DNA of 64,000 bases from the NCBI RefSeq assembly GCF_002286735.1, contig NZ_NRTA01000022.1, forward strand, positions 1-64,000, written 5' to 3'. Below, in pieces: positions 11,307 to 28,269 of this stretch (position 1 is the first letter of the stretch; each line of letters starts with the position of its first letter). A model generated the notes under the pieces. The model had not been told where the DNA came from. It did not search any database and was given only the letters and a program-made list of their open reading frames with translations. Position numbers and translations under genes: made by a program. This DNA is from Leptolyngbya sp. BC1307. GTDB taxonomy: Bacteria > Cyanobacteriota > Cyanobacteriia > Phormidesmidales > Phormidesmidaceae.

Positions 11307-12257
11307 ATGCTTTATTTTCTATCGGTTAATTACTATTCCACCGAGCTATTGCGTCACCTGCTGCGGTCTGTAGCGGCGCTCTCTTTCCCGCTACCCTACC
11401 AGTTTATTATCGTCAATAATTCTCCTGACGATACGTCTGTCTACGTTCTGCAGCAGGAGTTTGAGAATATAGCAATTCTTCCAGCTGCGGGCAACTTGGG
11501 GTTTGGCGGGGGCTGTAATTTGGGGTTGGCGTATGCCTATCAGCGGGATCCGCGCGCTTGGGTGTGGCTGATCAACCCGGATGCGGTTTTGGTGGTGGGG
11601 GCGATCGCTTACGTCCACACCTGCTTCGAGCACCGGCCCACGCTCAGCATTTTAGGCACCCGCATTCGAGCGAGTAGCAAAGATATCTGGTTTGCTCAGG
11701 GCCGCTTCAACCCGTGGACGGGGTCTCTCAAGCATCGATTGCCCGCCGCGCAAACCGTCCACCAGTCAGCAGAGCAGCCTGCTAACGTGCTCGCCAGCCG
11801 TTGGGTATCGGGTTGCAGTATGATTTTTAACTTGCATCGGTTCGACCATTGCCCTGAGTTTGATCCCACCTTTTTTTTAGACTACGAAGACGCCGAGATC
11901 TGCGAGCGCTACCGCCGTCAGGGGCATGAAATTGGTGTGACTCAGGCGGTGTTGGTAAACCATGCGGTATCGGCCATTACCAGCCGCAACCGCCGCGCGA
12001 AGTTTCGACATGCGACCTTTAGCAAACTGTACTTTCTTTTCAGGCATGGCTCCTGGACGGCGCTTGGCCTGAACATTCCCTACCTGCTGATCTGGAGCAT
12101 CAAGCTACTGCTGCGTGATCGGGAAACGGGTATCGGCCGTTTTCAGGGCTGGATAGACTTTATGAGCTGGTGGGCAAAGTCGTTAACCCATCGGCTACCG
12201 CCCACTCCGTTCCGTCCGAGGACGGCTTTTACCCAGTCGCAGCAGCCGCATGAGTAA
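11307..12257 (+). CDS. Family 2 glycosyltransferase (rhamnosyltransferase-like)
   Basis: A 316-residue GT2 protein with FLSVNYYSTELL at the start of the nucleotide-binding fold, a glycine-rich NLGFGGGCNLGL, and LINPDAVL as the metal-binding acidic stretch. FLDYEDAEICERYRRQGH is the usual acceptor-side motif of WbbL-like rhamnosyltransferases. The C-terminal part is hydrophobic (LFRHGSW... to LLIWSIKLLL), suggesting membrane association. A TTG at 11286 lies upstream in frame; the ATG at 11307 starts directly at the fold. It is transcribed towards the polysaccharide cluster and overlaps its last gene tail to tail. Confidence 0.82.
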   Translation: MLYFLSVNYYSTELLRHLLRSVAALSFPLPYQFIIVNNSPDDTSVYVLQQEFENIAILPAAGNLGFGGGCNLGLAYAYQRDPRAWVWLINPDAVLVVGAIAYVHTCFEHRPTLSILGTRIRASSKDIWFAQGRFNPWTGSLKHRLPAAQTVHQSAEQPANVLASRWVSGCSMIFNLHRFDHCPEFDPTFFLDYEDAEICERYRRQGHEIGVTQAVLVNHAVSAITSRNRRAKFRHATFSKLYFLFRHGSWTALGLNIPYLLIWSIKLLLRDRETGIGRFQGWIDFMSWWAKSLTHRLPPTPFRPRTAFTQSQQPHE

Positions 12258-13082
12258 GTGATAGAGCGTTTGCGGGTAGGCATACCAGGGGCAGTAGCGG
12301 AGGAAAATGTAAATAATGGCCGGCACAAACAGGTGAGATTTAGGGTGAAAGAAAGCGTACTTCAGCCCCGCGATCCGCTTGAAATCTTGTTTTTTTTGTG
12401 CAGCCGAAAAGTCGTCTTGCAACACCACATGCGGAGCCACGTACGCCTCGATTCCAGACCGTCTGGCCCGCAGAATAAGCTCAGAATCGGCATGATAGTG
12501 CGGCAAAAACGCAGCCTGATACAAGCCCACCTGCTCAAAAACGCTGCGATGGATGAGAACGCCATCTCCGGGTAGCGCATCGACCGCTAAAATCTCCTGA
12601 GCCATGATGTCTGCGGGTAAATCTTCAGCAAGCGTATTGACATACTGTAGCTGTAAGAATCTGGGCGTGCCCCAGACGAGCTGAGTGCCCAGCGCCCAAA
12701 CTTGATGAGGCGGCTCCAAATAATCAATGCGGTTTCCGATTATTCTCAGGCTGTGTTTCTGCGCCAAGGCGATCAGGCGCTGTATGTGGTCAGGGGCCAC
12801 CACCGCATCGTCGTTAATCGTAAAAATATAGTCGTAGCCATGTTCTAGGGCATAGCGGACGCCTGCGTTAGTCGCACCTGCCCAATACTGTTGATCGCTG
12901 ACCTGCAGCAAGATCACGTCAGGATAGTGTTGCTGTACCTCCCTCGCCGTACCGTCGGGAGAGTCGGCATCGACAACAATAGTAGTCAGGTCTGCATACG
13001 TTTGCTGGACAAATTGTCCTAAAAATCGCTGTGTTTTGGGCCAGCGATTATAAGTCGGTACAACTGCGGCTACCTTAACCAC
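12195..13082 (-). CDS. Family 2 glycosyltransferase
   Basis: A 295-residue single-domain GT-A enzyme. It opens with VVPTYNRWPKTQRFL, has DADSPDGT, and the metal-binding FTINDDAVVAPDHI near residues 90-103. LPHYHADSELILRARRSG is the acceptor-side acidic motif. It starts with GTG at 13082, sharing one base with the stop of the preceding gene (TAGTG), so it is the last gene of the exporter/glycosyltransferase operon. Its 3' end overlaps the converging GT2 gene by 63 bases. The sugar and linkage are unknown. Confidence 0.82.
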   Translation of the reverse strand: MVKVAAVVPTYNRWPKTQRFLGQFVQQTYADLTTIVVDADSPDGTAREVQQHYPDVILLQVSDQQYWAGATNAGVRYALEHGYDYIFTINDDAVVAPDHIQRLIALAQKHSLRIIGNRIDYLEPPHQVWALGTQLVWGTPRFLQLQYVNTLAEDLPADIMAQEILAVDALPGDGVLIHRSVFEQVGLYQAAFLPHYHADSELILRARRSGIEAYVAPHVVLQDDFSAAQKKQDFKRIAGLKYAFFHPKSHLFVPAIIYIFLRYCPWYAYPQTLYHLLMRLLRLGKSRPRTERSGR

Positions 13083-14884
13083 TAACGGGAACCTCTTTGC
13101 TGGTTACGCCCATCGGGCCAGGCAAGTTGAAAGAAGGGGCGGCGCGAAGACAAATTAGGGTTGTAGTAAGGGTCATTTTGCAGGTAACAACTTCCTGCAA
13201 ATTTCTCATGAAGGCGTTCTAGCTCTCCAGGGATTCCAGGGCTGAGTCCGTTAGCGCGGCTTACCGACTCGTAGTGAATGAGTTCTGCGTAGGGGGTAAA
13301 CACATTGCGATAGCCTGCTTGATGGGCTCGCAGACACAGGTCTACGTCGTTGTAGCTCAGAGGAAAGCTTTCGTCAAAGCCATTGAGTTCTTCAAACAGG
13401 CGATGGCGCATCATCATACAGGCTCCGGTTACGCCCAGGTAGTCGCGGTTGACAATGTTGGAATAATAATATCCATCATGGTTGCCTGAACCATTGTGAA
13501 ATGCATGGCCAGGTTTTCCGGTCAGGATTAGCATTCCTGCGTGCTGTAGGCGACCATTGGGATAAAATAGCTTAGCCCCGACAGCACCGATCTCTGTTTG
13601 CTGAGCCAGCTCTAGCATGGCTTCTATCCAGTTGGAAGTCATGATCTCTGTATCGTCATTTAGCATCAGCAGGATTTCGCCGTTAGCACTTTGCGCCGCC
13701 AAGTTCATACGCTGGGAAAAATTGAAGGGCTGATCGCTGCGGACGAGTTTTAGATCTGCTCCTTGAACTAACTTGAGAGTAGCTTTTGAAATATCGTAAC
13801 CATCTACTAAAATGATTTCCAAATTTTGGTAGGTACTGAGGCGGCGAATGCTGCTCACACATTGCGCTAGCAGACAGACTTGCTGACCCCGTATTTTTAA
13901 ATGGGTGCCTGCGCTAGGGATGACAATACTGACTAGCGGGCGGCGCTGAATATGGCGACGGACTCTAAACAGACCTGATTTCGCACCTTTTTCAACCCAA
14001 CCTGGATATGGGCTGCGATCCAGCATGTCTTGGAGTGCTCTTTGCGCAGCCCGAGAGGCCCGCAGATTGGCATCTACCCCAGATGACAGCGAAGAGGGTA
14101 GCGTGCGCCGATGATACAACACCTTGGGAACATGGTGAATCTGTGATGTTTGCTCGCTGATACGTAGTGCTAAGTCCCAATATTGGGCTCCCTCGTACTC
14201 GCTTCTAAAGCCTTTGATTTTACGAACCAAACTGGTGCGGTACACAGACAAATGCAGGGTGTACATATATGAATGAAAATAGTCTGGTGACCAGTCAGGT
14301 TTGAAGAAAGGGTTTTGGCGATCGCCTGCCTGAGTAATCTGGTCTACATCGGTGTAGATAAAGTCAGCTTTCGGGTGAGCCCGCAGATAGGTAGCAACTT
14401 CGTAAAAAGCGGTTGGAGCAAGTTCCGCATCGCTCTCTAATAGCGCAACAAATTCACCTTTGGCTAACGTTAAGGCTACATTATTAGCGGCAGATATGCT
14501 CCGGTTCTGTTCTAAAAGAACAAAGGTGATGCGCTGATCTTGCTGAGCATAGCGTTCTAAAATCGGGCGGATATGTCTAGCCGTAGAGACAATGCCGGTT
14601 AAATATAGCTCCCAGCGAGCGTATCGCTGGTTCAGAACCGACTCAATCGACTTGATCAACCAGATAGCATCAGTATTGTCGAGGGGCAAAAGAACAGAAA
14701 TGAGGAAACCGTTTGCCTCAGTATCAGCTACCTCCTCAGCGGTTTCTTGCTGTGAAACATTGGCTGCTGCGCGCAACCATTCTGGATATGAAGGCGGATG
14801 TATTCTGGCCCATAACCGTTCAACGACGCCAAAAAAATCACCGGTTGCTAGGATTAGAATCAGTCGCCTTAGCTTGGATATCAT
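13082..14884 (-). CDS. Two-domain family 2 glycosyltransferase
   Basis: A 600-residue protein with two GT-A domains: about residues 60-300 and 310-560. The second has SIVIPSAG, LMLNDDTEI and SYNDVDLCLRAHQAGYR and looks intact. In the first, the place where its neighbour reads LDHDDEL reads LESDAEL, so the metal-binding acidic pair is altered and this domain may be weakened. It lies between the larger three-domain transferase and the small GT2 and overlaps the latter by one base. It probably adds one or two sugars in the exported glycan. Confidence 0.83.
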   Translation of the reverse strand: MISKLRRLILILATGDFFGVVERLWARIHPPSYPEWLRAAANVSQQETAEEVADTEANGFLISVLLPLDNTDAIWLIKSIESVLNQRYARWELYLTGIVSTARHIRPILERYAQQDQRITFVLLEQNRSISAANNVALTLAKGEFVALLESDAELAPTAFYEVATYLRAHPKADFIYTDVDQITQAGDRQNPFFKPDWSPDYFHSYMYTLHLSVYRTSLVRKIKGFRSEYEGAQYWDLALRISEQTSQIHHVPKVLYHRRTLPSSLSSGVDANLRASRAAQRALQDMLDRSPYPGWVEKGAKSGLFRVRRHIQRRPLVSIVIPSAGTHLKIRGQQVCLLAQCVSSIRRLSTYQNLEIILVDGYDISKATLKLVQGADLKLVRSDQPFNFSQRMNLAAQSANGEILLMLNDDTEIMTSNWIEAMLELAQQTEIGAVGAKLFYPNGRLQHAGMLILTGKPGHAFHNGSGNHDGYYYSNIVNRDYLGVTGACMMMRHRLFEELNGFDESFPLSYNDVDLCLRAHQAGYRNVFTPYAELIHYESVSRANGLSPGIPGELERLHEKFAGSCYLQNDPYYNPNLSSRRPFFQLAWPDGRNQQRGSR

Positions 14885-14945: not shown

Positions 14946-17900
14946 CTATTTAGAAAAATAGGCTTCTCTAAATAGTGAGGCATATCCTTCGGTCATCTCT
15001 TCAAAGGTATTAAGGCTGTTCAGTACAGAGTAGGAGCTACAACCAAAGGCTAGCCGTATTGCTTCATCGTCTAGCATCAATTTTATCTTTTCTGCTAGCT
15101 GATCGATTTCTCCTGGCTCATAAAAGAGAGCATTGATACCCTCTTTTACCTGCTCTTTAACACCGAAAACAGGCGTTGTAATAATGGGCAGTCCGCAGGC
15201 CATTGCCTCTAAAATAACTCTTGGGAAGCTTTCAATTCGAGACGTAAATACGAAGATGTCGGCAGCTTTATAGTAATCAACAACATTTGATGTTTCTGAG
15301 ACGACAGAAACTCTATGGCGAACTGAAGACGGTAGCTGCTTTATTAGCTGCTTCAGCTTGGTGCTGTATTGACTCGGGCGATCGCCCACCATAAATACTC
15401 TGATCCTAGAGTGTAATTCCAAAGGTAGTTTGGCCAGTGCAAGGGCAAGATCGTGCTGGCCTTTACGTTCACAAATGGTTCCGAGTGAAAGCAAAACAAT
15501 ATCACCCTCGGTCACTTGCAAAGAGTGGCGAGCGGTTTTTCTAGTCATGGCTTTTTGAGAAGGCTCTAACCGTTCTAAATTTAAGCCATTGTGAATAACG
15601 CTGAAGTTGTGATGAGTATTTAGAGGCAAGTATCTATCCCTGGTTGCATCTGCTACGAATATGACACGGTAAGGAAACTGAAATGACTTTAGCGCATGAG
15701 CTAAAAGCTGTGTGCCAAAGTGGGATAGGTGAAATTCCCATTCTTCGCTCTCGTGAATGTTCCAAATAGAGGGAACATTTGCTTGATGGGCGGCGGCGAT
15801 CGCGTAAAAAGTACTGATCGTATTTCCATAGACCAGCTCTATGGATTGACTTTTAATAAAATCTGCCAGAGCAGAGAGACTCTCACAATAGTTTTCAACC
15901 CTGAACACACCCTGTAAAGGATGTGGCCTGACGTATACGGTAATTCCTGCCGATTCGTATTCCTGGCGTAGTGGGCCGTCTTCAGGCGCATACACGATTG
16001 GTTCAATAACACCCGACTTCATGAGTGAAATCGTTAATTCACACTGGTGATAGGTTGCCCCTTCCCAGTTCAGATTATGAGTAAATACCAGCGTTTTAAC
16101 GGGTGACGATATCTCAAAAACGACCTTTCGAGGCACAATCTTAAACTGTTCATCTTCTAGGGATAAATGAGGACTGTAGAAAGGGTCAACTTTACTTGCG
16201 TACTTGCGCTTAAAGGCAGCTATCTCTTGAGGATTGTCTCTGAACCCTCTTGTTGTTCCCTCCTTATGGAAAAGCTCAGCGGTAGAACAATACACGCATC
16301 TGTACCCTGCCTCAACAAGACGATAGCAATAGTCTGCATCGTTATAGGCAACTGCAAATTGATCGCTATCAAACCCGCCTGAATCTAAAAACAACTCTCT
16401 CGGTGTTAATAGACAGGCGGCTGTTACCGCCGAGTAGTTGCGAGAGACCTTAGCATACGAAAGGTAACCGTTATCCCAACTAGGAACCAGTTTAAAGGCA
16501 TGTCCGGCTAGACCATGATGCAAACCATGTATGACACCAGCATGTTGAATTTTGCAATCTGGGTATAGCAGGCGAGCACCGACAGCCCCCACCTTTGAAG
16601 AACTGGCAAATCCAACCATTTGGCTAAGCCACTGAGGAGAAATCGCTTCAACATCATTATTCATGAAAAGTAAGTAATCGCTATTGACCAGTTCAGCCGC
16701 CCTATTGTTAATCGCAGCAAAGTTGAAGCCTTGGCCTTCATTACCAATTTCTAAGACGGTATGAGGAATTGAATTCAAATAGTCAAGCGTTTCAGGGTCG
16801 TCACTCTCATTGTCAATGATGACAATTTGATAGTTTTTATAGGTGGTTTTTTCTAAAGACTCAATACAGTCTCTGAGCAAACACAACTGATTTTTTGTTG
16901 GAATAATGATGGAAACAGACGGACCATCATCTGCAAAATAGTATGCAAAAATACCACAGCTAGCCGCTTGTGCCCACTCCGGATGATAGACTATTCCGCT
17001 GAGATCTCGACGTTCAAGCGTCTCCTGCAGCGCTTCTTTGGCTGCCAAAAAACTTTCTGGCTTAGCGGCCCCCGAAGTCGCTGTAGACCCTTCTACAGCC
17101 CGCCAGTGATACAGAACCAGGGGCAAATGCCCCACCTGACGGCACTTTTCTGTTGCCCTGAGCGCAAAATCATAGTCTTGCGATCCCTCAAAGCCTACTC
17201 TGATACCGTCTACCTGATCAAAAATAGTCCGCCTGACAGCGCAAACGTGGCCCATGTACATATACGACAGAAGCAGCTCAGGTGACCAGTCAGGTTTGAA
17301 TTGAGGCGCGTAGCGTTGTCCCTGCGTATTGATCTTGTCATCGTCTGAATACACAAAATCAGTCTCTGGATGATTTTTCAAATATAATGCAATCTCACCA
17401 AGAGCATCAGGGGTGAGTTCATCATCATGGTCAAGAAACAAAATAAACTCGCCTGTCGCTAAGCTTGCAGCGCTGTTGGTAGCAGCGCTGATGTTGCCAT
17501 TCTCCTCGCGCAAAATCAAGCGAATGCGATCATCTCTATCAGCCCAAGCCTTTAGGGCCAGCTGTATATCTGGATTAGGGCTGAAATCATCGGCAATGCA
17601 TAGCTCCCAGTTATCGTAAACCTGACTGATGACACTGCTGATCGCAGCCTCTAAAAAAATAAGCGGCGGGTTGTAAACCGGCATCACGACTGAGATCTTA
17701 GCTAAAGGTGAGACATCCTCTTGCAGCCTTTCTCGTAAGTATCGCTCGGTTTTTGCAGTCCATTGGTTAGCTGCTTGCCAAGCCTCGTACGGGTCGAGCG
17801 GAGCGGGAGGTTGAAACCCTGGAACAGAAGCTAGTTCCTTTCCTAAGCTTGTTTTTTCCCGATAGAAGAGGATCAACTTTTTAGTCAATAAGGGAAGCTC

Positions 17901-18065
17901 ACTCAGCCGAACAAGGTATCCTAGCCTTGATTGTCTTTCGATAATTCTTTGACGCAACCGCGCTAAAAAATAAGTGTTCTGCTTGAATACGATTCTCAAA
18001 GCAGACAAAGGGCTAGCCTGTCTTCCCTTCCGTGAGTTTTTATTTTCTTCGGCTTTATTGCTCAT
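14946..18065 (-). CDS. Three-domain glycosyltransferase (GT2-GT2-GT4)
   Basis: A 1039-residue modular enzyme. After a basic N-terminal 125 residues comes GT2 domain 1 (ISVVMPVYNPP, metal-binding FLDHDDEL, then YSDDDKI), GT2 domain 2 from about 375 (SIIIPTKNQ, LFMNNDVEAI, AYNDADYCYRLVEAGYR) and, from about 660, a GT-B domain of family GT4. The GT4 part keeps SLGTICERKGQ and the nucleotide-binding SRIESFPRVILEAMACG stretch. Such fusions build several successive linkages of an O-antigen-like glycan. It has no membrane helix, so it acts on the cytosolic face. It lies downstream of the wzm/wzt exporter genes. Confidence 0.87.
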   Translation of the reverse strand: MSNKAEENKNSRKGRQASPLSALRIVFKQNTYFLARLRQRIIERQSRLGYLVRLSELPLLTKKLILFYREKTSLGKELASVPGFQPPAPLDPYEAWQAANQWTAKTERYLRERLQEDVSPLAKISVVMPVYNPPLIFLEAAISSVISQVYDNWELCIADDFSPNPDIQLALKAWADRDDRIRLILREENGNISAATNSAASLATGEFILFLDHDDELTPDALGEIALYLKNHPETDFVYSDDDKINTQGQRYAPQFKPDWSPELLLSYMYMGHVCAVRRTIFDQVDGIRVGFEGSQDYDFALRATEKCRQVGHLPLVLYHWRAVEGSTATSGAAKPESFLAAKEALQETLERRDLSGIVYHPEWAQAASCGIFAYYFADDGPSVSIIIPTKNQLCLLRDCIESLEKTTYKNYQIVIIDNESDDPETLDYLNSIPHTVLEIGNEGQGFNFAAINNRAAELVNSDYLLFMNNDVEAISPQWLSQMVGFASSSKVGAVGARLLYPDCKIQHAGVIHGLHHGLAGHAFKLVPSWDNGYLSYAKVSRNYSAVTAACLLTPRELFLDSGGFDSDQFAVAYNDADYCYRLVEAGYRCVYCSTAELFHKEGTTRGFRDNPQEIAAFKRKYASKVDPFYSPHLSLEDEQFKIVPRKVVFEISSPVKTLVFTHNLNWEGATYHQCELTISLMKSGVIEPIVYAPEDGPLRQEYESAGITVYVRPHPLQGVFRVENYCESLSALADFIKSQSIELVYGNTISTFYAIAAAHQANVPSIWNIHESEEWEFHLSHFGTQLLAHALKSFQFPYRVIFVADATRDRYLPLNTHHNFSVIHNGLNLERLEPSQKAMTRKTARHSLQVTEGDIVLLSLGTICERKGQHDLALALAKLPLELHSRIRVFMVGDRPSQYSTKLKQLIKQLPSSVRHRVSVVSETSNVVDYYKAADIFVFTSRIESFPRVILEAMACGLPIITTPVFGVKEQVKEGINALFYEPGEIDQLAEKIKLMLDDEAIRLAFGCSSYSVLNSLNTFEEMTEGYASLFREAYFSK

Positions 18066-18297: not shown

Positions 18298-19287
18298 TCA
18301 ACCAGACGGTTTCGGATTAATCAGGCGCTTGACTTTGAACCAAGCTGTTCTGATCTTCCAGAATTTGCTGGATTCCATTGCTCGAACAACCTGTTTAGAT
18401 TCTGCTTGAGTTTTCTGTAGTTCTGCTTGAGTTTTCTGTAGTTCTGCTTGAGTTTTCTGTAGTTCTGCTTGAGTTTTCTGTAGTTCTGCTTGAGTTTTCT
18501 GTAGTTCCATCCCTGCCTGATTCATCTCCCTTCGAAGCTCGCAGCATTTCTCCTGAAGGGCAATATGCCCGTGGGTCGTTGAGCATGAATATGCCCGAAC
18601 TACAAATTGCAGCGAGTCCGAAAACTTATCTGCATGGATAAACTCTAATAGCTCATCAGAAACTTTCTCTCTGTTCAAGTTTGGTGTCAGAGGGGACGCA
18701 TCGAATATTGGCAGTCTAGTACTATCCTCTGACTCTATATAATAACCTGAAGATTCAAATAGATGACGCAGAGAATCATGAGTAAAAAAACGTAGATGAG
18801 TGTTGTCAAGTAGACCTAGTTCTGAATATTCAAAACGACCCTCAAGCAAAGCCAATCGAACAGAACCATGTGCAACATTAGGTATTGAGGCGATTACACA
18901 ACCATTGGGATTCAGGATGTCCTTGACAGACTTTAATACCTGCCATGGATCTCTCAAGTGTTCCAGCACGTCTCCAAATATAGCGACATCAAATTTTTGC
19001 TCTCCTATAATAACTTCAACTTTGTCGTAGTCGAGATCAGCTACTATGACACGTTCACAGAACTGTTCAGCGGCTTTGGCAGCATCCGGATTTATTTCGA
19101 TACCAACAGTTTTACATCCCTGCTCTGCTAATAGTTTCGCGAGGTATCCCGTCGCACATCCAAAATCAATGACTTGCTTATCATTCCCAACAAAAGCCAA
19201 TATTTTGGCTAAGCTAGTATTCTCATCTAAATGTTCTTTAGAGATGTGTGTAATATCAGGATAGCCTTTAAATTTTTTATCTGACAT
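18298..19287 (-). CDS. SAM-dependent methyltransferase with coiled-coil tail
   Basis: A 329-residue class I methyltransferase. The SAM-binding motif is VIDFGCATGYLAKLLAEQG (about 38-56), followed by the acidic IEINPD, and FDVAIFGDVLEHLRDP as motif II/III, as in Ubie/Methyltransf_23 enzymes. From about residue 255 a heptad repeat (AELQKTQ, five exact DNA copies) forms a predicted coiled coil, ending in a basic SKFWKIRTAWFKVKRL tail. Given its place between wzt and the glycosyltransferases, it may cap or modify the glycan, and the coiled coil may set chain length or partner contact, as in WbdD-like terminators. That role is inferred. Confidence 0.8.
   Translation of the reverse strand: MSDKKFKGYPDITHISKEHLDENTSLAKILAFVGNDKQVIDFGCATGYLAKLLAEQGCKTVGIEINPDAAKAAEQFCERVIVADLDYDKVEVIIGEQKFDVAIFGDVLEHLRDPWQVLKSVKDILNPNGCVIASIPNVAHGSVRLALLEGRFEYSELGLLDNTHLRFFTHDSLRHLFESSGYYIESEDSTRLPIFDASPLTPNLNREKVSDELLEFIHADKFSDSLQFVVRAYSCSTTHGHIALQEKCCELRREMNQAGMELQKTQAELQKTQAELQKTQAELQKTQAELQKTQAESKQVVRAMESSKFWKIRTAWFKVKRLINPKPSG
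18401..18505 (-). repeat. Five 21-bp tandem repeats coding for a heptad coiled coil
   Basis: Five identical 21-bp units in the methyltransferase gene, each coding one AELQKTQ heptad. DNA identity between units shows recent expansion rather than selection on the protein alone. Copy number could vary between strains and change coiled-coil length by one heptad at a time. Confidence 0.95.
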
Positions 19288-19345: not shown

Positions 19346-20638
19346 CTAATTTATTCCCATGTTTTTTTCGATGGAGACTTCCATAGGTATATTTATCGCT
19401 GCGGTAATAAATTTTCCACTTTGAGGTATCTGAACCTGAAAAATGGTGACATTATCTAGCCAATCACAAGTCGTAGTTGTATAGCTTTCTGCACCTGCAA
19501 CGGTCAAGCTATAACCGCCTGCCTTCAGAGGTAACCGGAAAGAAAACTTAACTGCAAATTTATCAGTGGCCCTCAGTGAGCCCATCGAAACATTCTCCTC
19601 TTTTGTGTTACTGCCTATCAACTCATTGCCGTTCTTATCACAGATAAAAAACCCAATAATAAAGTCTTCTAGCGATGCGTTGACACAAACATCAGTCACA
19701 AGCGTAATCATTTCATCGAATTTAAACACTGGGCTAGCAATGGCTAAGTCACCATTCTCATGAAAAATCCGAATATGCTCAATCGTTGCTCGTCCACTTC
19801 CTCTGCGGCTTGCGTTTTCTGTCAACAATTGAGAATTATCCTCATGATTCAATATTGATGGCTTGCTGTTGTTGGGGATATTTACTTCAGATTGTTGTAG
19901 CTCAATCTGAGTGGCTAGCTTCATATAGTCAATAAAAACGTCATTTGGCCGTCCACTTGTATGGACCTTTCCCTGCTCTAACATAAACGCAGATTTACAT
20001 AACGTCTTTACAGCGTTTGCGTCGTGCGATACAAATAGTGTAGTCACTCCTAAATCCATCAGCGTTTTGATACGACGCATGCACTTGTGCTGAAACACGA
20101 CATCTCCAACAGCTAGTGCTTCATCGACAATAAATATCTCTGGGTCCACATGTACGGCTACCGCGAACCCCAACCGCACAAACATCCCACTCGAATAAGT
20201 TTTGATGGGCTGCTCGATAAATTCTCCTATATCTGCGAACGCCGCAATCTTATCAAACTTCGTCTCAATCTCCGCCTGGCTTAATCCTAAAATTCGTCCA
20301 TTAAAAAAAATATTCTGCCGTCCCGTAAACTCGGGATTAAATCCGCTCCCTAGCTCCAACAATGCCGAAACTCGCCCATTGACACTCACATTACCTGTTG
20401 TCGGCTGTAACGTTCCCACAATAATTTGCAGTAGCGTACTTTTCCCAGACCCATTACGGCCAATAATCCCGATCGTCTCTCCCTTAGGAATCTCCAGATT
20501 AATATCCCGCAGCGCCCAAAACTCCTCTGCCCGCTGTTTCCCTGGCAGCAAAATCTCTTTCAGCCGATCCACCGGATGGTGATATCGCTTGAATACCTTG
20601 GAAACATTTGTTAGAGAAATCGCAGTACTTTCAGCCAT
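19346..20638 (-). CDS. wzt: Polysaccharide ABC exporter, ATP-binding protein (Wzt type)
   Basis: A 430-residue ATPase of the O-antigen/teichoic acid export family. Walker A is GRNGSGKSTLLQ, the signature is the YSSGM type followed by VRLGFAVAVHVDPEIFIVDE, and VSHDA holds the switch His. An additional C-terminal domain from about residue 265 (beta-rich, with FIGFFICDKNGNELIGSNT) is the Wzt carbohydrate-binding module that selects the finished, usually capped, glycan. It follows wzm by 41 bases and precedes the methyltransferase by 58 bases. Confidence 0.92.
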   Translation of the reverse strand: MAESTAISLTNVSKVFKRYHHPVDRLKEILLPGKQRAEEFWALRDINLEIPKGETIGIIGRNGSGKSTLLQIIVGTLQPTTGNVSVNGRVSALLELGSGFNPEFTGRQNIFFNGRILGLSQAEIETKFDKIAAFADIGEFIEQPIKTYSSGMFVRLGFAVAVHVDPEIFIVDEALAVGDVVFQHKCMRRIKTLMDLGVTTLFVSHDANAVKTLCKSAFMLEQGKVHTSGRPNDVFIDYMKLATQIELQQSEVNIPNNSKPSILNHEDNSQLLTENASRRGSGRATIEHIRIFHENGDLAIASPVFKFDEMITLVTDVCVNASLEDFIIGFFICDKNGNELIGSNTKEENVSMGSLRATDKFAVKFSFRLPLKAGGYSLTVAGAESYTTTTCDWLDNVTIFQVQIPQSGKFITAAINIPMEVSIEKNMGIN

Positions 20639-20679: not shown

Positions 20680-21573
20680 CTACAACACATCTGCAAATGC
20701 CGGACGCAGCTTTTTATAGCACCAAAATCCAGCCAAAAACAGGCCCAATGACGTTGCTGTTGCCACTCCCCACTCGCCCCAATGAGTCACTTGGCCTACC
20801 AATATCGTATCTCGATACATCTCCCCGATCGCCGCCAATGGATTTAACCAAAATACCCACTGCTGGAAAGGGGGTGGAATCATGTCAGCGGGGTAAATTA
20901 GCGGCGTTGCGTAAAACCACAGATTAAGCAATACCCCCAGCGTCTGGGGAATATCGCGAATAAACACCGTCAGCCCAGCCGTTAAGTAACCCAGTCCTGC
21001 TGTCAGCAGCAACTGCGGTATCCACACGAGGGGCAAGAGTAAGAGCGTTGGATGGAGCGTGTTGCTTATAGATACTACAAACACAATCAGCGCCATCAGG
21101 CCGAACGTGCTTTCTAAAAAGCTCGATAATATCGGCACCAGCGGCAGCAAGCTCAGTGGAAAGACCACTTTCTTGACTAGGTTAGGCTGTCCCACGACCG
21201 AGCCGGACGCCTGGGTTATGCCGCCGCTGAAGGCAATCCAGGGGACTAAACCGGCAAACAACCACAGCCCAAATACAAACGAATTGTCGGCAGGTAACCC
21301 TTTCAGGCTAAGCTTCACCCGCAGAACAATGGCAAACACATAAGTGTAAATTAACAACTGCGCTAGCTGATTCAGCAGCGGCCACAGATTCCCCAACATA
21401 GAGCCCTTATAGCGAGCATCCATGTCTCGCTGTACCAGCGTTTTCAGCAGCCCTACCTGAGCCCACTGTGGTTCACTTAGCGGCAGCAGCAGCTTTAGAG
21501 ACGCCATCTGTCGCCATAGCAAACGTTTGAGTGCTTTGAGAGACGCTTTGATGGGTCTTAATACCACTGTCAT
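20680..21573 (-). CDS. wzm: Polysaccharide ABC exporter, permease (Wzm type)
   Basis: A 297-residue ABC-2 type permease. After a cytosolic N-terminus it has the family stretch LVQRDMDARYKGSMLGNLWP, then six hydrophobic spans and the conserved PLIYPADMIP near residue 230. With Wzt it moves a lipid-linked polysaccharide across the plasma membrane. It is the first gene of a leftward operon (wzm, wzt, methyltransferase, three glycosyltransferases). Confidence 0.92.
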   Translation of the reverse strand: MTVVLRPIKASLKALKRLLWRQMASLKLLLPLSEPQWAQVGLLKTLVQRDMDARYKGSMLGNLWPLLNQLAQLLIYTYVFAIVLRVKLSLKGLPADNSFVFGLWLFAGLVPWIAFSGGITQASGSVVGQPNLVKKVVFPLSLLPLVPILSSFLESTFGLMALIVFVVSISNTLHPTLLLLPLVWIPQLLLTAGLGYLTAGLTVFIRDIPQTLGVLLNLWFYATPLIYPADMIPPPFQQWVFWLNPLAAIGEMYRDTILVGQVTHWGEWGVATATSLGLFLAGFWCYKKLRPAFADVL

Positions 21574-23074: not shown

Positions 23075-24400
23075 ATGCCTCTCGATTTGCCCCGGTTCTA
23101 TCGCGCTGCTAATCCTAGCCGTCCGCTGAAGGTGGCGCAGCCGGAAGATCGGCGGTATTACGTGGATTTTTCTTCGGTGCGGGGCGGCGATATTATCAGC
23201 GAGCTAGGCCGCACGATTGTCCGGCTTTCGCCCGATCAGCCGACGACTCAGCTGTTTACCGGGCATATTGGCTGCGGCAAGTCTACGGAGCTATTTCGGC
23301 TAAAGGGCGGGCTTGAGCAGCAAGATTTTCACGTCGTCTATTTTGAATCTGACCGCGATTTGGAAATGGCAGATGTGGATATTAGCGATATTTTGCTGAT
23401 GATTGCCCATCAGGTGACCCAGAGTATGGAGACGGTGGGCATTCGCCTGCGCCCCACTTACCTGGAGAATTTGTTTCGCAATCTTCTAGAGACGCTGCGA
23501 TCGCCCCTAGAAGTCAGCGATGTTAGCTTTTCGGTAGGAATCGCTGCTATCACCGCTCGGGCTAAAGAAAGCCCCGAGATGCGCAGCCAGCTCCGGCAAT
23601 ACCTGGAGCCTCGGACTAAAGGTATTATCGACGCGATTAATACAGAGATTTTGGGAGCGGCGACAGCGAGGCTCAAGGCTCAAGGCAAACGCGGCCTGGT
23701 TGTGATTGCCGATAACCTGGATCGGATTGACCCCATTAGCCGAGCAGACAGTCGCAGCCAGTCAGAATATCTGTTTGTAGATCGCGGTGAGCAACTTAAG
23801 CGGCTGAATTGCCATGTGGTGTATACCATTCCGCTGGCGCTAATCTTTTCAGATGAGCTGCCGCGCCTGTCTAATCGGTTTGGCACTGCGCCGAAGCTGC
23901 TGGCAATGGTGCCGGTAGCCACTCGAACCGGCGATCCTTTTCTAAAAGGACGACAGCTTTTGGAAAAGATGGTGATGGTGCGGGCTTTCCCGACGCTAAA
24001 GACGCGCGATCACTGGCAGCAAATCGAACAGGTATTTGACTCGCCCGATACCCTCACTCGCCTGGTAACGATCAGCGGCGGCCACATGCGCAACCTGATG
24101 CGACTGCTCTATGGCTGTTTGCAAAAGGGCGATCCGCCGATTCGCCGGGAGACCTTGGAATCGGTCATTCGCGATGAGCGCGACGCCCTACTGGGCCTGA
24201 TTGGTGCGGGCGAATGGCGGCTGCTCTTAGAGGCAGTGAGCGAAGGCGACGAGCAGGGCAACGAAGCTTACAATCCTCTCCTACGCAGTCTGTTTTTATA
24301 CGAATACCGCGACGATGAAGGCCGCTGGTTTGGTCTCAACCCCGTACTGGCTGAGACTAAGCGCTATCGCCTCTGGCAGGCCAGTAATCAGGGCCAGTGA
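23075..24400 (+). CDS. P-loop ATPase paired with a STAND protein
   Basis: A 441-residue P-loop NTPase. It opens with LPRFYRAANPSRPL and an EDRRYYVDFSSVRGG stretch. Walker A is GHIGCGKSTE (about 69-78) and Walker B is GLVVIADNLDRI (about 206-217). Arg-rich sensor-like stretches (SNRFG, ISGGHMRNLMRLL) follow. I recognise it as a conserved cyanobacterial ATPase commonly followed by a WD40/STAND gene, but know of no assigned function. No membrane segment is seen. An open frame reaches a TTG at 23063; ATG 23075 gives the family N-terminus. Its stop codon lies inside a 13-bp tandem repeat, 134 bases before the STAND gene. Confidence 0.8.
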   Translation: MPLDLPRFYRAANPSRPLKVAQPEDRRYYVDFSSVRGGDIISELGRTIVRLSPDQPTTQLFTGHIGCGKSTELFRLKGGLEQQDFHVVYFESDRDLEMADVDISDILLMIAHQVTQSMETVGIRLRPTYLENLFRNLLETLRSPLEVSDVSFSVGIAAITARAKESPEMRSQLRQYLEPRTKGIIDAINTEILGAATARLKAQGKRGLVVIADNLDRIDPISRADSRSQSEYLFVDRGEQLKRLNCHVVYTIPLALIFSDELPRLSNRFGTAPKLLAMVPVATRTGDPFLKGRQLLEKMVMVRAFPTLKTRDHWQQIEQVFDSPDTLTRLVTISGGHMRNLMRLLYGCLQKGDPPIRRETLESVIRDERDALLGLIGAGEWRLLLEAVSEGDEQGNEAYNPLLRSLFLYEYRDDEGRWFGLNPVLAETKRYRLWQASNQGQ

Positions 24401-24432
24401 TCAGGGCCAGTGATCAGGGCCAGTGATCAGGG
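24381..24432 (+). repeat. 13-bp tandem repeat spanning the ATPase stop codon
   Basis: Four copies of CCAGTGATCAGGG, the first with one change (AGTAATC). The ATPase TGA at 24398-24400 falls in the second copy, so copy number can grow without changing the protein. Confidence 0.9.
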
Positions 24433-24465
24433 CCAGCAGGCGGGCGGGAAGGTAGAATAGCGCAG

Positions 24466-24534: not shown

Positions 24535-27500
24535 ATGGTTGATACGCATTTAGACATTCTTATCTATAACCAAAATGCCCTGAACAATCTGCGCCGGGCG
24601 ATGGTGCTAGGGCAGGGACAGTTCTCTCTGATTTTAGCCCGAGTGAATTACCGGCGGTTGCAGCAGTTGCTACTGTCAGAACTTGGTGACCGCCTCCGCT
24701 TTGATACCATCCCACTTCCACCCACCGCCACCCGGCTAAAAGACGCCATTCTCGACGCCACATCCGACGCTGCCCCCACTGGTCAGCGGCAGGCGCTGAT
24801 GGTCACCGGGTTAGAGGCCGTGCGATCGCTAGAACCTTTGCTGAAAGCCGCCAATCTGGGCCGTGATGAACTGCCGAAAGTCTTTAACTGTCCGGTAGTG
24901 CTGTGGGTAAATGACACGACCTTGCAGCAGCTCAACCGCTATGCCCCCGACCTGAAAAGCTTTGCCGCCACTCCCCTCCGATTTGAATATCCGACGCCGT
25001 CGCTGATTGCGATGCTGAGCGCCCAGGTAGACGACACCTTTGCTCAGATATTAGATACCAGCCAGGGCATTTCGCTGAGCGATCGCCTACCTTTCAGCAC
25101 CAGCCTGACCCAACCGCTCGCCAGACAAGAGCTATCGTTTGCCCTGACCCAGCTCGAAAGTCATGAGCATTGGGTCAGCGATGATTTGACTGCCGACTTA
25201 CTCTTTTTAGAAGGGCGTAATCTGCACCAGCGGCAAGACCTAGATCGCGCCCGCAGCCACTACGAAGAGAGTCTAAAGCACTGGCAGCACCGCAACAACG
25301 CTGATCAAGCTGTCAGGTCAGCCATTAGCAGCCTCGATAAACAGGCTGTTTTACTGTTTCACTTAGGGCTGTGGTGGCGCGTTCAGGCGGTCTCAAAGGC
25401 GATTGATCCCGTCTACGCCTATCAACAGGCAAAACAGTATTTTGAAGACTGTCTGGCGATTTTTCGGCAGCAAGATCGGCCCGACCGGGTGGGTCGGTTT
25501 ATCTTGGCCCTGGCAGAAGTGTTACAAAAGCAAGCAGACTGGTCGGGGCTAGCAGCGATCGCTCAGTCCGGCATTGATCTGCATCAAAGTGACCCTGCCA
25601 GACTAGCGAGAGACTATGGCTATCTGGCTGAAGTTGCGATCGCTCGCTATGACGCCGATCCGCATGCGAACTATTTGGGTGAGGCACGGGGGTTTGCGCA
25701 GCAGGCTTTGGAGATTTCGGGGCGGGTTGTTGAAGGGAGGGGGACAGGAGAGCAGGAGACAGGAGACAGGAGAGCAGGTGCGATCGCTTTGCGCTACCAT
25801 CGCGGCTATTATTTTTATTTGCTGGCGGTGGCGGGGCAGCTTCAGGGGGAGCCAGCGACGGCGATCGCTCAGCTCGAAAAAGCCCGGCAGCAGACCGATC
25901 CACGCTACGACCTCGTCCTTTACCGCAACGTTTTAAGTCGGCTGTGGCAGCTTTACTTTGAACATCAGCACTATGCTGAGGCTTTTGAGATTAAGCTGGC
26001 GCAGCGACGGGTAGAAAATCTCTTTGGGCTGAGGGCTTTTATCGGGGCCAGCCAGATCCGGCCACCGGTTGCTCGGTCGCCTTATCCAGGATTTGTGAAC
26101 TCGGATAATGGCTCAGATGAGATATTGGCAGCGGAGATTAAAGCATCCGGGCGGGCTCCAGATATTGCAGCGCTAGTCAGCCGCCTCGCGCAGCCGCGCT
26201 ACCCGATTGTGGTGATTCACGGTCAGTCGGGCGTGGGCAAAAGCTCTACGCTCAGCGCTGGGCTAATGCCTCGGCTGCGCAGCCTGATCAGTGAGGGGCG
26301 CACTACCTGGCCAGTCTTGATTGGTAGCTATAGCGATTGGGCCCGTCAAGTTTTGGGCGCGCTGACCCCCTCGACCCATTTGCAAAAGCAAGAGAGTGAT
26401 GCAGATATCTCTGTTCATCACCTAATTGACCAGCTAAAGACGCTCACTCGCGAGAAATATCAGCAGATTGTGCTGATATTTGATCAGTTTGAAGACTTTT
26501 TTTATGAGCACCCGGCGATTGAGCAGCGGCGCGATCTCTATATCTTTTTGCGTGACTGTTTAGATTTGCCCTATGTCAAAGTGGTGCTGGCGCTACGAGA
26601 AGATTTTTTACACTACCTGCTGGAGTGGGATCGCAGCGCCGATCTGAACGCGATTGAAAACGATATTCTCAGCAAAGAGATTCGCTACTACCTGGGCAAT
26701 TTCACACCTGAAGCGGCTGAAACGGTGATCTGGCAGCTCACGCAGGCGGCAGAGTTTTATTTAGAAGAGGGTCTAATTACGACGCTGGTGAATGATTTGG
26801 CCGCAGAGACGGGAGAGGTGCGCCCGATTGAACTACAGGTGGTGGGCGCTCAGCTACAGCGCGAGCAGATTACGACGCTGGCCCAGTATAAACAGATGGG
26901 GCGATCGCCCAAAGCTCAGCTACTCAACAACTTTTTAGACAGTGTGATTCATGACTGCGGCGCTGAAAATGCCACCGTTGCTAAATCTGTGCTCTATTTG
27001 CTCAGTGAAGGGAGCAACCGCCCGGTCAAAAGTCTCTCTGAACTGGAAGAAGCCCTGATGCTAGCCGGTATCCGCACGGCCTCTTTGCAGCTGGTGCTGA
27101 CTATCTTTATTGGCTCAGGCTTGGTCTTTGAAGTGTTAGAAGTCTCGGGCGTGCGCTATCAGCTCGTACACGAATATCTAGGCGGCTTAATTCAACAGCT
27201 GCCTGGCCTGGAAGAGGCGCTGCAACCCGAGCACCGCCATCGCCAGCCCGCTCTCGCTCTTGACCAGCCAGCCCAGCCAGCCGTTCCGCTAGAGCCAACA
27301 GCTCCTGCTGCAACGGTTTGTCGGGGGCACGCGGGCACAGTCTGGGCAGTGCGATGGTGCCCGCAAAACAGTTCGCTGCTGCTGACGGCGGGGGGCGACG
27401 ATACGATTGGGCTGTGGAGCGATCGCGGTGAGCAGTTAAAGTCAATTGTCGGTCATCGGCGCGGGGTACATGGCGTAAACTGGAGCCCGAACGGCGACTT

Positions 27501-28269
27501 TTTTGCTTCGGCCAGCGCCGATCACTCAGTGCGACTCTGGAGTAGTGAAGGCGACTTTGTGCGATCGCTCCTCGGTCATGAAGCGGCAGTTTGGCAGGTC
27601 TGCTACAGTCCGGATGGCAGCCGGTTAGCGTCGGTGAGCAGCGATCGCACTCTGCGCTTATGGCACCCCGAGGGCACCCTGCTCAAAACCTGGCGCGAGC
27701 ACACAGACACCATCTGGCACGTCAGCTTCAGCCCCGATGGTCAATATTTGGTCACCGCCAGTGAAGACCAGACCATTCGCCTGTGGCAGGTCGAAACCGG
27801 GTTAGTGCAAACGCTGACAGGTCACAGCGGCGGGGTCTGGTGCGCCCTCTTTAGCCCAGACGGTCAGTGGGTGGCTTCGGGTGGTGCAGACGGCGTCATT
27901 CGGCTGTGGTCAGTAACGGGACAAGCCGTTCACATCGAGCCCGATCCGCTGACCTGGCAAGGCCATCACGACTGGGTCAGAAGCCTCAGCTTTAGCCCAA
28001 ATGGAGAACTTTTGGCGTCGGCCAGTGATGATGGCACGGTGCATCTGTGGTCGCTCTCGCCAGCAGCCCTAAAGTCACTGGGCCCGGCTGATGGGACTGC
28101 CAGACACAGCACAGCTACGCTGACCGGGCATGAGGGGGTAATTTGGGAGGTGGCGTTTGATGCGTCGGGCGATCGCCTGGCTTCGGCCAGTGCCGACGGC
28201 ACCCTGAGAATCTGGGATTTACGGTTAGATATATTGATAGAAAAGGGCTGCGACTATCTATCAGGCTAG
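24535..28269 (+). CDS. STAND-type protein: NTPase-like N-terminus, TPR region, nSTAND1 ATPase, seven WD40 repeats
   Basis: A 1244-residue signal-transduction ATPase. Residues 1-170 resemble the N-terminal region of cyanobacterial STAND proteins (PVVLWVNDTTLQQLNRYAPDL stretch), without a P-loop. Residues 200-500 are helical and TPR-like. An nSTAND1-type ATPase begins near 520 (SPYPGF), with Walker A GQSGVGKSS near 563 and Walker B VLIFDQFEDF near 646. Seven WD40 blades fill 925-1235, the first opening GHAGTVWAVRW and the last ending LRIWDL. Such proteins usually sense a ligand through the propeller and oligomerise. Residues 400-416 are a low-complexity insert. No known effector domain is seen, so output may pass to the partner ATPase upstream. 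Confidence 0.85.
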   Translation: MVDTHLDILIYNQNALNNLRRAMVLGQGQFSLILARVNYRRLQQLLLSELGDRLRFDTIPLPPTATRLKDAILDATSDAAPTGQRQALMVTGLEAVRSLEPLLKAANLGRDELPKVFNCPVVLWVNDTTLQQLNRYAPDLKSFAATPLRFEYPTPSLIAMLSAQVDDTFAQILDTSQGISLSDRLPFSTSLTQPLARQELSFALTQLESHEHWVSDDLTADLLFLEGRNLHQRQDLDRARSHYEESLKHWQHRNNADQAVRSAISSLDKQAVLLFHLGLWWRVQAVSKAIDPVYAYQQAKQYFEDCLAIFRQQDRPDRVGRFILALAEVLQKQADWSGLAAIAQSGIDLHQSDPARLARDYGYLAEVAIARYDADPHANYLGEARGFAQQALEISGRVVEGRGTGEQETGDRRAGAIALRYHRGYYFYLLAVAGQLQGEPATAIAQLEKARQQTDPRYDLVLYRNVLSRLWQLYFEHQHYAEAFEIKLAQRRVENLFGLRAFIGASQIRPPVARSPYPGFVNSDNGSDEILAAEIKASGRAPDIAALVSRLAQPRYPIVVIHGQSGVGKSSTLSAGLMPRLRSLISEGRTTWPVLIGSYSDWARQVLGALTPSTHLQKQESDADISVHHLIDQLKTLTREKYQQIVLIFDQFEDFFYEHPAIEQRRDLYIFLRDCLDLPYVKVVLALREDFLHYLLEWDRSADLNAIENDILSKEIRYYLGNFTPEAAETVIWQLTQAAEFYLEEGLITTLVNDLAAETGEVRPIELQVVGAQLQREQITTLAQYKQMGRSPKAQLLNNFLDSVIHDCGAENATVAKSVLYLLSEGSNRPVKSLSELEEALMLAGIRTASLQLVLTIFIGSGLVFEVLEVSGVRYQLVHEYLGGLIQQLPGLEEALQPEHRHRQPALALDQPAQPAVPLEPTAPAATVCRGHAGTVWAVRWCPQNSSLLLTAGGDDTIGLWSDRGEQLKSIVGHRRGVHGVNWSPNGDFFASASADHSVRLWSSEGDFVRSLLGHEAAVWQVCYSPDGSRLASVSSDRTLRLWHPEGTLLKTWREHTDTIWHVSFSPDGQYLVTASEDQTIRLWQVETGLVQTLTGHSGGVWCALFSPDGQWVASGGADGVIRLWSVTGQAVHIEPDPLTWQGHHDWVRSLSFSPNGELLASASDDGTVHLWSLSPAALKSLGPADGTARHSTATLTGHEGVIWEVAFDASGDRLASASADGTLRIWDLRLDILIEKGCDYLSG
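25735..25780 (+). repeat. Purine-rich short repeat inside the STAND coding region
   Basis: An array of GGAGACAGGAGA-like units that stays in frame and codes GRGTGEQETGDRRAG in the TPR region. The same CAGGAG/GACAG sequence type occurs between genes at 50040-50085 and 53836-53879, so this looks like an intergenic repeat family lodged in a gene. Confidence 0.75.

What the first reader, a model, noticed from the sequence alone, without database searches (positions are those of the whole stretch)
18401..18505. DNA-identical heptad repeats in a glycan methyltransferase
Five 21-bp units each add exactly one AELQKTQ heptad. In WbdD-type terminators a coiled coil acts as a ruler for polysaccharide length. 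A repeat that expands in heptad units next to wzm/wzt is an attractive, adjustable molecular ruler.
Basis: inference. Interest (0 to 1): 0.55.

Follow-up and report, generated by a model that had tools for sequence, protein, structure and literature searches.

The report
Heptad-tuned rod on capping methyltransferase
In a cyanobacterium, an enzyme that probably caps surface sugar chains before export sits on a predicted coiled-coil rod whose length differs between relatives mostly in whole seven-residue steps, which could give cells a simple way to adjust sugar-chain length.

Summary
The repeat is real: five DNA-identical 21-bp units in the predicted coil of a class I methyltransferase (MTase) encoded directly after wzm-wzt. 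The ruler idea gains indirect support. (1) Over 40 distinct tail-bearing relatives, window included, the distance from catalytic domain to a conserved tail runs from 72 to 232 residues, yet 30 of 40 agree modulo 7, and 12 of 12 differing close pairs differ by whole heptads. The window itself is off by four. (2) The MTase type is paired with one Wzt C-domain type, 35 of 35 against 2 of 37; paired Wzts keep Thr, Ala and Trp of the Aquifex methyl-cap pocket in 36 of 36, others keep Trp in 9 of 37; the fourth residue, Leu, is not kept. (3) The tail (AMESSKFWKLRxxWFxLK) is a cyanobacterial module shared with glycosyltransferases, sulfotransferases and other MTases, its letters absent from the held papers. 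Against: no glycan is measured, the tail is not terminator-specific, its hydrophobic moment equals shuffles, and similarity to WbdD is only class-wide. Verdict: probable methyl-cap terminator on a heptad-quantised rod; ruler function untested.

The parts
18403..18507 (-). five identical 21-bp units, ELQKTQA x5
18298..19287 (-). methyltransferase - predicted coiled coil - tail protein, 329 aa
18730..19191 (-). class I SAM methyltransferase domain (Methyltransf_23, aa 33-186)
   Evidence: fold best match 3cc8, Z 24.5
18370..18579 (-). predicted continuous helix aa 237-306 that holds the repeats (about 10 nm if fully helical)
   Evidence: AlphaFold2 model of one chain, mean pLDDT 91.3
18301..18378 (-). 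conserved tail from M304 (MESSKFWKIRTAWFKVKRLINPKPSG); helix break at S307, helix 308-323
19346..20638 (-). Wzt, ABC transporter ATPase with C-terminal carbohydrate-binding domain
19412..19813 (-). Wzt_C domain (aa 276-409); positions that match the Aquifex methyl-cap pocket: F331, T379, A381, W393
20680..21573 (-). Wzm, ABC-2 membrane subunit
14946..18065 (-). glycosyltransferase with GT2 matches (two stretches) and a GT1 match, no tail found
13082..14884 (-). glycosyltransferase with two GT2 stretches, no tail found
12195..13082 (-). GT2 glycosyltransferase, no tail found

Best explanation
The ORF is most likely the terminating enzyme of a glycan polymerised in the cytoplasm and exported by the adjacent Wzm-Wzt transporter. 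The MTase would methylate the non-reducing end, and the Wzt C-domain would read that methyl cap and start export. The catalytic domain is held on an alpha-helical coiled-coil rod whose far end carries a basic-aromatic tail that docks at the inner membrane or on a partner. Tandem duplication of 21- or 42-bp units lengthens or shortens the rod in whole heptads, so the position of the capping site, and with it the minimum chain length, could be reset by simple repeat changes, as coil insertions and truncations do in WbdD. Shown here by computation: repeat, predicted helix, tail, heptad quantisation, MTase-Wzt_C pairing, pocket conservation at three of four positions. Inferred: capping, oligomeric coiled coil, docking, and the effect on chain length.
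For: Distance from the end of the MTase domain to the tail: 30 of 40 distinct sequences are 2 mod 7 (13 of 22 distinct lengths), range 72-232; 12 of 12 differing close pairs differ by 7, 14 or 42 residues, one by a single 42-bp unit whose variants are homogenised within each lineage. In tail proteins at large, 35 of 36 exact repeats before the tail have periods that are multiples of 21 bp. Window-type Wzt_C in 35 of 35 Wzts with this MTase within 3 kb, 2 of 37 without. Over 35 pairs the MTase tracks Wzt_C beyond Wzt_N (partial r 0.71; MTase with Wzt_N given Wzt_C 0.31; Mantel p 0.0005). Thr, Ala and Trp of the Aquifex methyl pocket kept in 36 of 36 paired Wzts; in the other 37: 6, 8 and 9. AlphaFold2: helix 237-306, break at S307, helix 308-323. 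MTases carry longer linkers than glycosyltransferases (median 145 against 96 after correction, p 0.002; longer in 15 of 19 loci). Literature: WbdD coil length changes modal chain length (PMC5082667 passages); Wzt-CBD binds 3-O-methyl-mannose (PMC9445017 passages).
Against: No enzyme assay or glycan structure. The tail and coil also occur on glycosyltransferases and other enzymes. The window is itself off phase by 4 and 10 of 40 sequences are off phase. The fourth pocket residue, Leu300, is Leu in only 1 of 36 paired Wzts (F 22, Y 11, H 2) but in 20 of 37 unpaired ones. Three of 20 MTase loci have only a short Wzt without the C-domain and two have no Wzt in the held flank. Two relatives (L224, L225) have the paired Wzt_C but no recognised tail, so the pairing does not need the tail. 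Coil lengths within a locus do not covary. Several other homologous groups of tail proteins are not quantised. The p values are not corrected for shared ancestry.
Confidence: 0.55

Rival explanations
1. Cap enzyme without a ruler: the MTase caps the chain and Wzt_C reads the cap, but the rod is only a spacer and tether whose length drifts by repeat slippage, held to whole heptads by helix packing alone.
For: Heptad phase is what any coiled coil needs; close relatives show drift of 7, 14 and 42 residues; within-locus rod lengths do not covary.
Against: MTases tend to carry longer rods than glycosyltransferases; WbdD, the characterised analogue, uses coil length as a ruler.
Confidence: 0.27
2. 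Generic assembly tag: coil and tail merely dock many enzymes of a glycan cluster to the membrane or a scaffold; the MTase decorates the repeat unit internally.
For: Tail on MTases, GT2, GT1 and sulfotransferases; two or more tails in 27 of 40 loci, and no Wzt match in 24 of 40 held stretches of up to 20 kb, some cut short by contig ends.
Against: Specific pairing of this MTase with one Wzt_C type and with three methyl-pocket residues.
Confidence: 0.13
3. The MTase acts on an unrelated substrate and its place beside wzt is incidental.
For: The catalytic domain resembles many class I MTases of different function by fold.
Against: Wzt_C directly upstream in 30 of 44 held flanks and in 15 of 20 loci.
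Confidence: 0.05

Closest known systems
WbdD of E. coli O8/O9a and Klebsiella O3/O5 (chain terminator with coiled-coil ruler)
   Same: N-terminal MTase, C-terminal predicted coil, short C-terminal helix, gene cluster with wzm and a Wzt that has a C-domain; WbdD holds its catalytic part about 20 nm away (PMC5082667 passages), within the 11-34 nm inferred for relatives here
   Different: No kinase (also absent in O8, PMC3482155 passages); MTase similarity is only class-wide; the tail is shared with many other cyanobacterial enzymes; rod length varies by DNA-identical heptad repeats
Klebsiella O7 ORF6 (MTase-kinase, coil, GT modules; orthologues noted in cyanobacteria, PMC11231755 passages)
   Same: MTase-coil-GT layout occurs in fused relatives such as L050, L223 and L228
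   Different: No second catalytic domain between MTase and coil in the window model
Aquifex aeolicus Wzm-Wzt with methyl-cap-binding C-domain
   Same: Window Wzt aligns over residues 9-420 of 430 (8dku_A, E 8.8e-82); Thr, Ala and Trp of the methyl pocket kept
   Different: Leu300 is Phe in the window; the cap chemistry here is unknown

Membership tests
WbdD-type chain terminator | N-terminal class I methyltransferase | tested here: met
WbdD-type chain terminator | sequence homology to WbdD beyond the class I core | tested here: inconclusive
   4azw E 0.0076 over residues 32-112 only
WbdD-type chain terminator | long heptad-repeat helix between catalytic domain and docking end | tested here: met
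   predicted continuous helix 237-306; Leu phase-locked before the tail in 188 tails
WbdD-type chain terminator | that helix forms an oligomeric coiled coil (trimer in WbdD) | not testable with these tools
   only single-chain models were run
WbdD-type chain terminator | membrane-associated amphipathic C-terminal helix and polymerase recruitment | tested here: inconclusive
   separate helix 308-323; mean net charge +5.5 but hydrophobic moment equal to shuffles over 177 tails; recruitment not testable
WbdD-type chain terminator | partner Wzt with a C-terminal carbohydrate-binding domain | tested here: met
   Wzt_C E 4.5e-27
WbdD-type chain terminator | terminal modification and chain-length control | not testable with these tools
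   needs enzyme assay and glycan analysis
Wzt with methyl-cap pocket as in Aquifex | Thr346, Ala348 and Trp362 equivalents | tested here: met
   T379, A381, W393; 36 of 36 paired Wzts, window included
Wzt with methyl-cap pocket as in Aquifex | Leu300 equivalent | tested here: not met
   F331 in the window; Leu in 1 of 36 paired, 20 of 37 unpaired. So I say it works like that pocket, not that it is the same type

The most novel reading that the evidence does not exclude
Cyanobacterial glycan clusters use a common rod-and-tail module (heptad coil plus ESSKFWKLR tail) on several enzymes, each rod length setting the height at which that enzyme works on the growing chain; the cap enzyme next to wzt carries a long, evolvable rod, and the Wzt pocket matches its chemistry (T-A-W for this MTase, N-G-R for sulfotransferases). 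Repeat-unit gain or loss would retune chain length without touching an active site.
Probability: 0.25. Interest if true: 0.82.

Novelty: new variant of a known kind. Interest (0 to 1): 0.64.

Why it matters
It offers natural length variants of a possible glycan ruler: enzymes 91% identical in the domain (L211/L213) whose rods differ by six heptads. Comparing their glycans would test the ruler model outside E. coli and Klebsiella. The MTase-Wzt_C pairing suggests a sequence rule for predicting caps in cyanobacteria, whose polymer pathways are called largely unknown in the abstract of PMC4594306 (listing), and the tail motif marks a large set of glycan enzymes for which I found no family model above its cut-off (capped lists).

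Tried and rejected
Amphipathic-helix claim for the tail: hydrophobic moment 0.286, z 0.06 against own shuffles over 177 tails, so I call it basic-aromatic and leave membrane binding as inference. Shared rod length within a locus: mean difference 56.6 aa against 53.1 shuffled, 31 loci and 77 tails, no support. Universal tail after Wzt: in the set selected by tail or MTase, 63 of 72 long Wzts are followed within 1.2 kb by a tail ORF, short Wzts 8 of 16, but among 40 Wzt_C loci chosen by the Pfam model alone (best-scoring) the first downstream ORF has a tail in 10 of 39 and any tail lies in the held stretch in 13 of 39 (one row had no Wzt match), so the form is a subset. Kinase domain: no Pfam match in the window protein. 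Repeat variation inside the genus of L042/G271: only 1 of 12 genomes carries the MTase. Close relatives of the window gene: 2 of 63 genomes of its family, itself included, so its own repeat history could not be traced. WbdD was not among the 50 entries shown by the fold comparison, which says nothing either way. Plasmid records gave 9 matches to the MTase, none above 60% identity and none of a cyanobacterium by name. Rows dropped: 8 of the MTase ORFs that passed the score cut had no tail by my pattern (L018, L177, L182, L187, L189, L194, L196, L203; L203 does end in a divergent tail, and some of these loci end before the gene does); 8 of 147 tail ORFs, fragments or near-duplicates, were left out of the Pfam census (139 given); 60 of 186 tails could not be classed as MTase or GT and are not in the linker comparison. 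In one search tail ORFs have exact 21n-bp repeats of 30 or more in 31 of 147 against 13 of 746 control ORFs, but some hits are runs of N (L064, L059) or lie outside the coil (L058, L076, L085), and some controls are other frames of tail ORFs (L064, L063); one search is the cleaner count.

Full report
What is there. The minus-strand ORF 18298-19287 (329 aa) has a class I MTase domain at residues 33-186, five identical 21-bp units at 18403-18507 encoding ELQKTQA five times, and a tail that reads AMESSKFWKIRTAWFKVK. It begins 58 bases after the end of wzt, which carries a Wzt_C domain and itself follows wzm; three glycosyltransferase ORFs follow on the same strand. The tandem array cannot be chance: 1536 synonymous units are possible and all five are the same.

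Shape. An AlphaFold2 model from an alignment of 30 sequences, window included (mean pLDDT 91.3), shows one helix from 237 to 306, a break at S307 and a second helix 308-323 made of the tail. The fold of the catalytic part is closest to 3cc8 (Z 24.5, 195 residues, rmsd 1.9), with many class I MTases below it. The model is of a single chain; a coiled coil of two or three chains is inferred from the heptad pattern.

The tail is a module. A search with the 34-residue C-terminus alone finds it in 124 of 291 genomes of the class at E up to 0.01; a 22-row profile finds it in 78 of 386 genomes of the phylum at E up to 0.001, with at most 21 candidates scored per genome. In the loci plus the window, a profile found 158 tails in 154 ORFs, repeats of the window gene included; 122 of 158 end within 25 residues of the ORF end. 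Many of these loci were picked by patterns that include MESSKFWK, so column conservation there is partly selected. Of 139 tail proteins scanned (of 147), the 106 shorter ones include 45 with Methyltransf_23, 22 GT2, 12 Methyltransf_24, 3 TylF, 2 FkbM-type and 2 sulfotransferases; the 33 longer ones 22 GT2, 18 GT1, 10 Methyltransf_11 and 4 sulfotransferases (one protein can count more than once). No Pfam or NCBIfam match above its cut-off covered the tail of the window protein; weak coil models below cut-off, such as APG6_N at 252-313, reach its first residues. Among the 80 loci kept of 147 confirmed, those whose match runs to query residue 320 or beyond all bear cyanobacterial titles; the rows of other phyla match the MTase domain only. 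The strings ESSKFWKLR, MESSKFWK, SSKFWKLR and ESSKFWK occur in 0 of 5.39 million held papers.

Where the tail lives. In 40 loci taken around the best tail hit of the 40 highest-scoring genomes (window genome left out), 16 have a Wzt and 15 a Wzm within the held stretch, and 27 have two or more tails; in 20 arbitrary stretches from ten tail-bearing genomes, 0 have a tail, Wzt or Wzm by the same test. So the tail belongs to glycan clusters, often but not always with an ABC exporter.

Repeats keep the heptad. In 145 tail ORFs, 36 have an exact repeat of at least 24 bp in the 250 residues before the tail; 35 of the 36 have a period that is a multiple of 21, most often 42 (19 of 36). Leucine is locked in phase at -10, -17, -24 and so on before the tail methionine, fading beyond about -90, over 188 tails.

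Rod length is quantised. From the conserved LQF at the end of the MTase domain to the tail, 20 relatives (19 and the window) give 72-229 residues, and 17 of 20 are 2 mod 7. Seven new tail-bearing relatives fitted less well, 3 of 7. With the further set and duplicates removed, 30 of 39 fit; the window adds one misfit: 30 of 40. Counting each length once, 13 of 22 fit (binomial p 1.4e-6). The misfits are +4 (five including the window), +1 (three), +3 (one) and -1 (one). Offsets of 3 or 4 are compatible with a continuous coiled coil (stammer or stutter, recalled); the others are not obviously so. Among 33 pairs with at least 75% identity in the domain, 12 differ in length, all by multiples of 7; these pairs share members and are not independent. 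L020 and L188 differ by one 42-bp unit, and in each the units have drifted to that lineage's own version; L211 and L213 differ by six heptads. Across 169 tail proteins, 107 nearest pairs of different length fall 47, 23, 8, 29 into folded residue classes 0-3, where 15, 31, 31, 31 would be even; some groups show no quantisation.

Pairing with the exporter. In the set, 15 of 20 loci with this MTase (score above 200 bits) have Wzt with the window-type C-domain, 3 have a short Wzt and 2 none in the flank; in the later set 30 of 44 have it directly upstream, some being the same loci again. Of 72 Wzts of 400 aa or more, all 35 with this MTase within 3 kb score at least 137 bits with the window C-domain; of 37 without it, 35 score 50 or less and two (L084, L117) score like the paired ones. 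Wzt_N scores also split, less sharply, so shared descent of the cassette explains part of this. In the 39 Wzt loci chosen by the Wzt_C model alone, the 4 with this MTase score 145-160 and the others 47 or less; those four repeat loci already counted, and two of them lack a recognised tail. Over 35 pairs the MTase distance follows Wzt_C after allowing for Wzt_N (partial r 0.71, Mantel p 0.0005), and Wzt_N after allowing for Wzt_C only weakly (0.31), though Wzt_N varies less and is a noisier control.

The methyl pocket. The window Wzt aligns nearly end to end with the transporter chain 8dku_A (E 8.8e-82), which I take to be the Aquifex Wzt of PMC9445017 (the entry list does not name the organism; recalled). 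In that paper Leu300, Thr346, Ala348 and Trp362 form the pocket for the methyl cap (passages). I placed them by that alignment, allowing for a one-residue numbering offset counted by hand, as window F331, T379, A381 and W393. Thr, Ala and Trp are kept in 36 of 36 paired Wzts, window included; in the other 37, Thr in 6, Ala in 8, Trp in 9, with Arg in 21 at the Trp place. The Leu place goes the other way: Leu in 1 of 36 paired (Phe 22, Tyr 11, His 2) and in 20 of 37 unpaired. By the type of tail enzyme encoded next to wzt, told by short sequence patterns, five sulfotransferase loci and eleven loci with one other MTase type have N-G-R, three loci with another MTase type have E-A-W, and three TylF loci have T-G-M or T-G-V. 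Alignment among these distant C-domains is less sure than within the paired set, and many of these loci are close relatives.

Ruler or spacer. In WbdD, insertions and truncations of the coil raise or lower modal chain length, with the catalytic part about 200 A from the polymerase (PMC5082667, passages). Relatives here span about 11 to 34 nm if fully helical (rise per residue recalled), and about 10 nm for the window helix. MTase linkers are longer than glycosyltransferase linkers (145 against 96 residues after a 43-residue correction for MTases only, p 0.002), and longer in 15 of 19 loci that have both, six of them close relatives; 126 of 186 tails could be classed. The correction was read off one relative, and glycosyltransferase linkers were not given a like one. 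This fits a capper held away from the polymerase, but no glycan has been measured.

Judgement. Capping by this MTase and reading by Wzt_C I put near 0.8; the whole chain of claims with rod length as a ruler near 0.55. Searches for earlier reports listed the WbdD ruler papers and the Klebsiella work that notes MTase-coil orthologues in cyanobacteria (PMC11231755, passages); in the listings and passages I saw there is no account of this tail or of heptad-quantised rods. PMC4594306, a phylum-wide survey of cyanobacterial export genes, does not use the word methyltransferase in its main text (term search).

Noticed in passing
L213 coil: Some repeat units carry GCGATCGC, the palindrome known as HIP1 in cyanobacteria (name recalled), in frame as part of the ERSQ codons; it might favour unit exchange.
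   Followed up: no
L048, L049, L060, L063, L130: The gene after wzt encodes a sulfotransferase-like start (RSGTS pattern) with a tail, and the paired Wzt has N-G-R in place of the methyl pocket: a possible sulfate cap.
   Followed up: partly
L084:7998-9152, L117:9756-10910: Tail near the N-terminus followed by about 330 residues without a Pfam match at E 0.001, encoded directly after a Wzt with the window-type C-domain.
   Followed up: partly
L018:7935-9048: The MTase and its tail lie in different frames of overlapping ORFs, within the repeat region: a frame break or sequencing error.
   Followed up: no
window 24379-24436, 33411-33483, 37228-37304: Other short tandem arrays with units of 13, 15 and 12 bases.
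   Followed up: no
window 24535-28269: 1244-aa ORF that by eye ends in WD40-like repeats after an ATPase-like part (not scanned).
   Followed up: no
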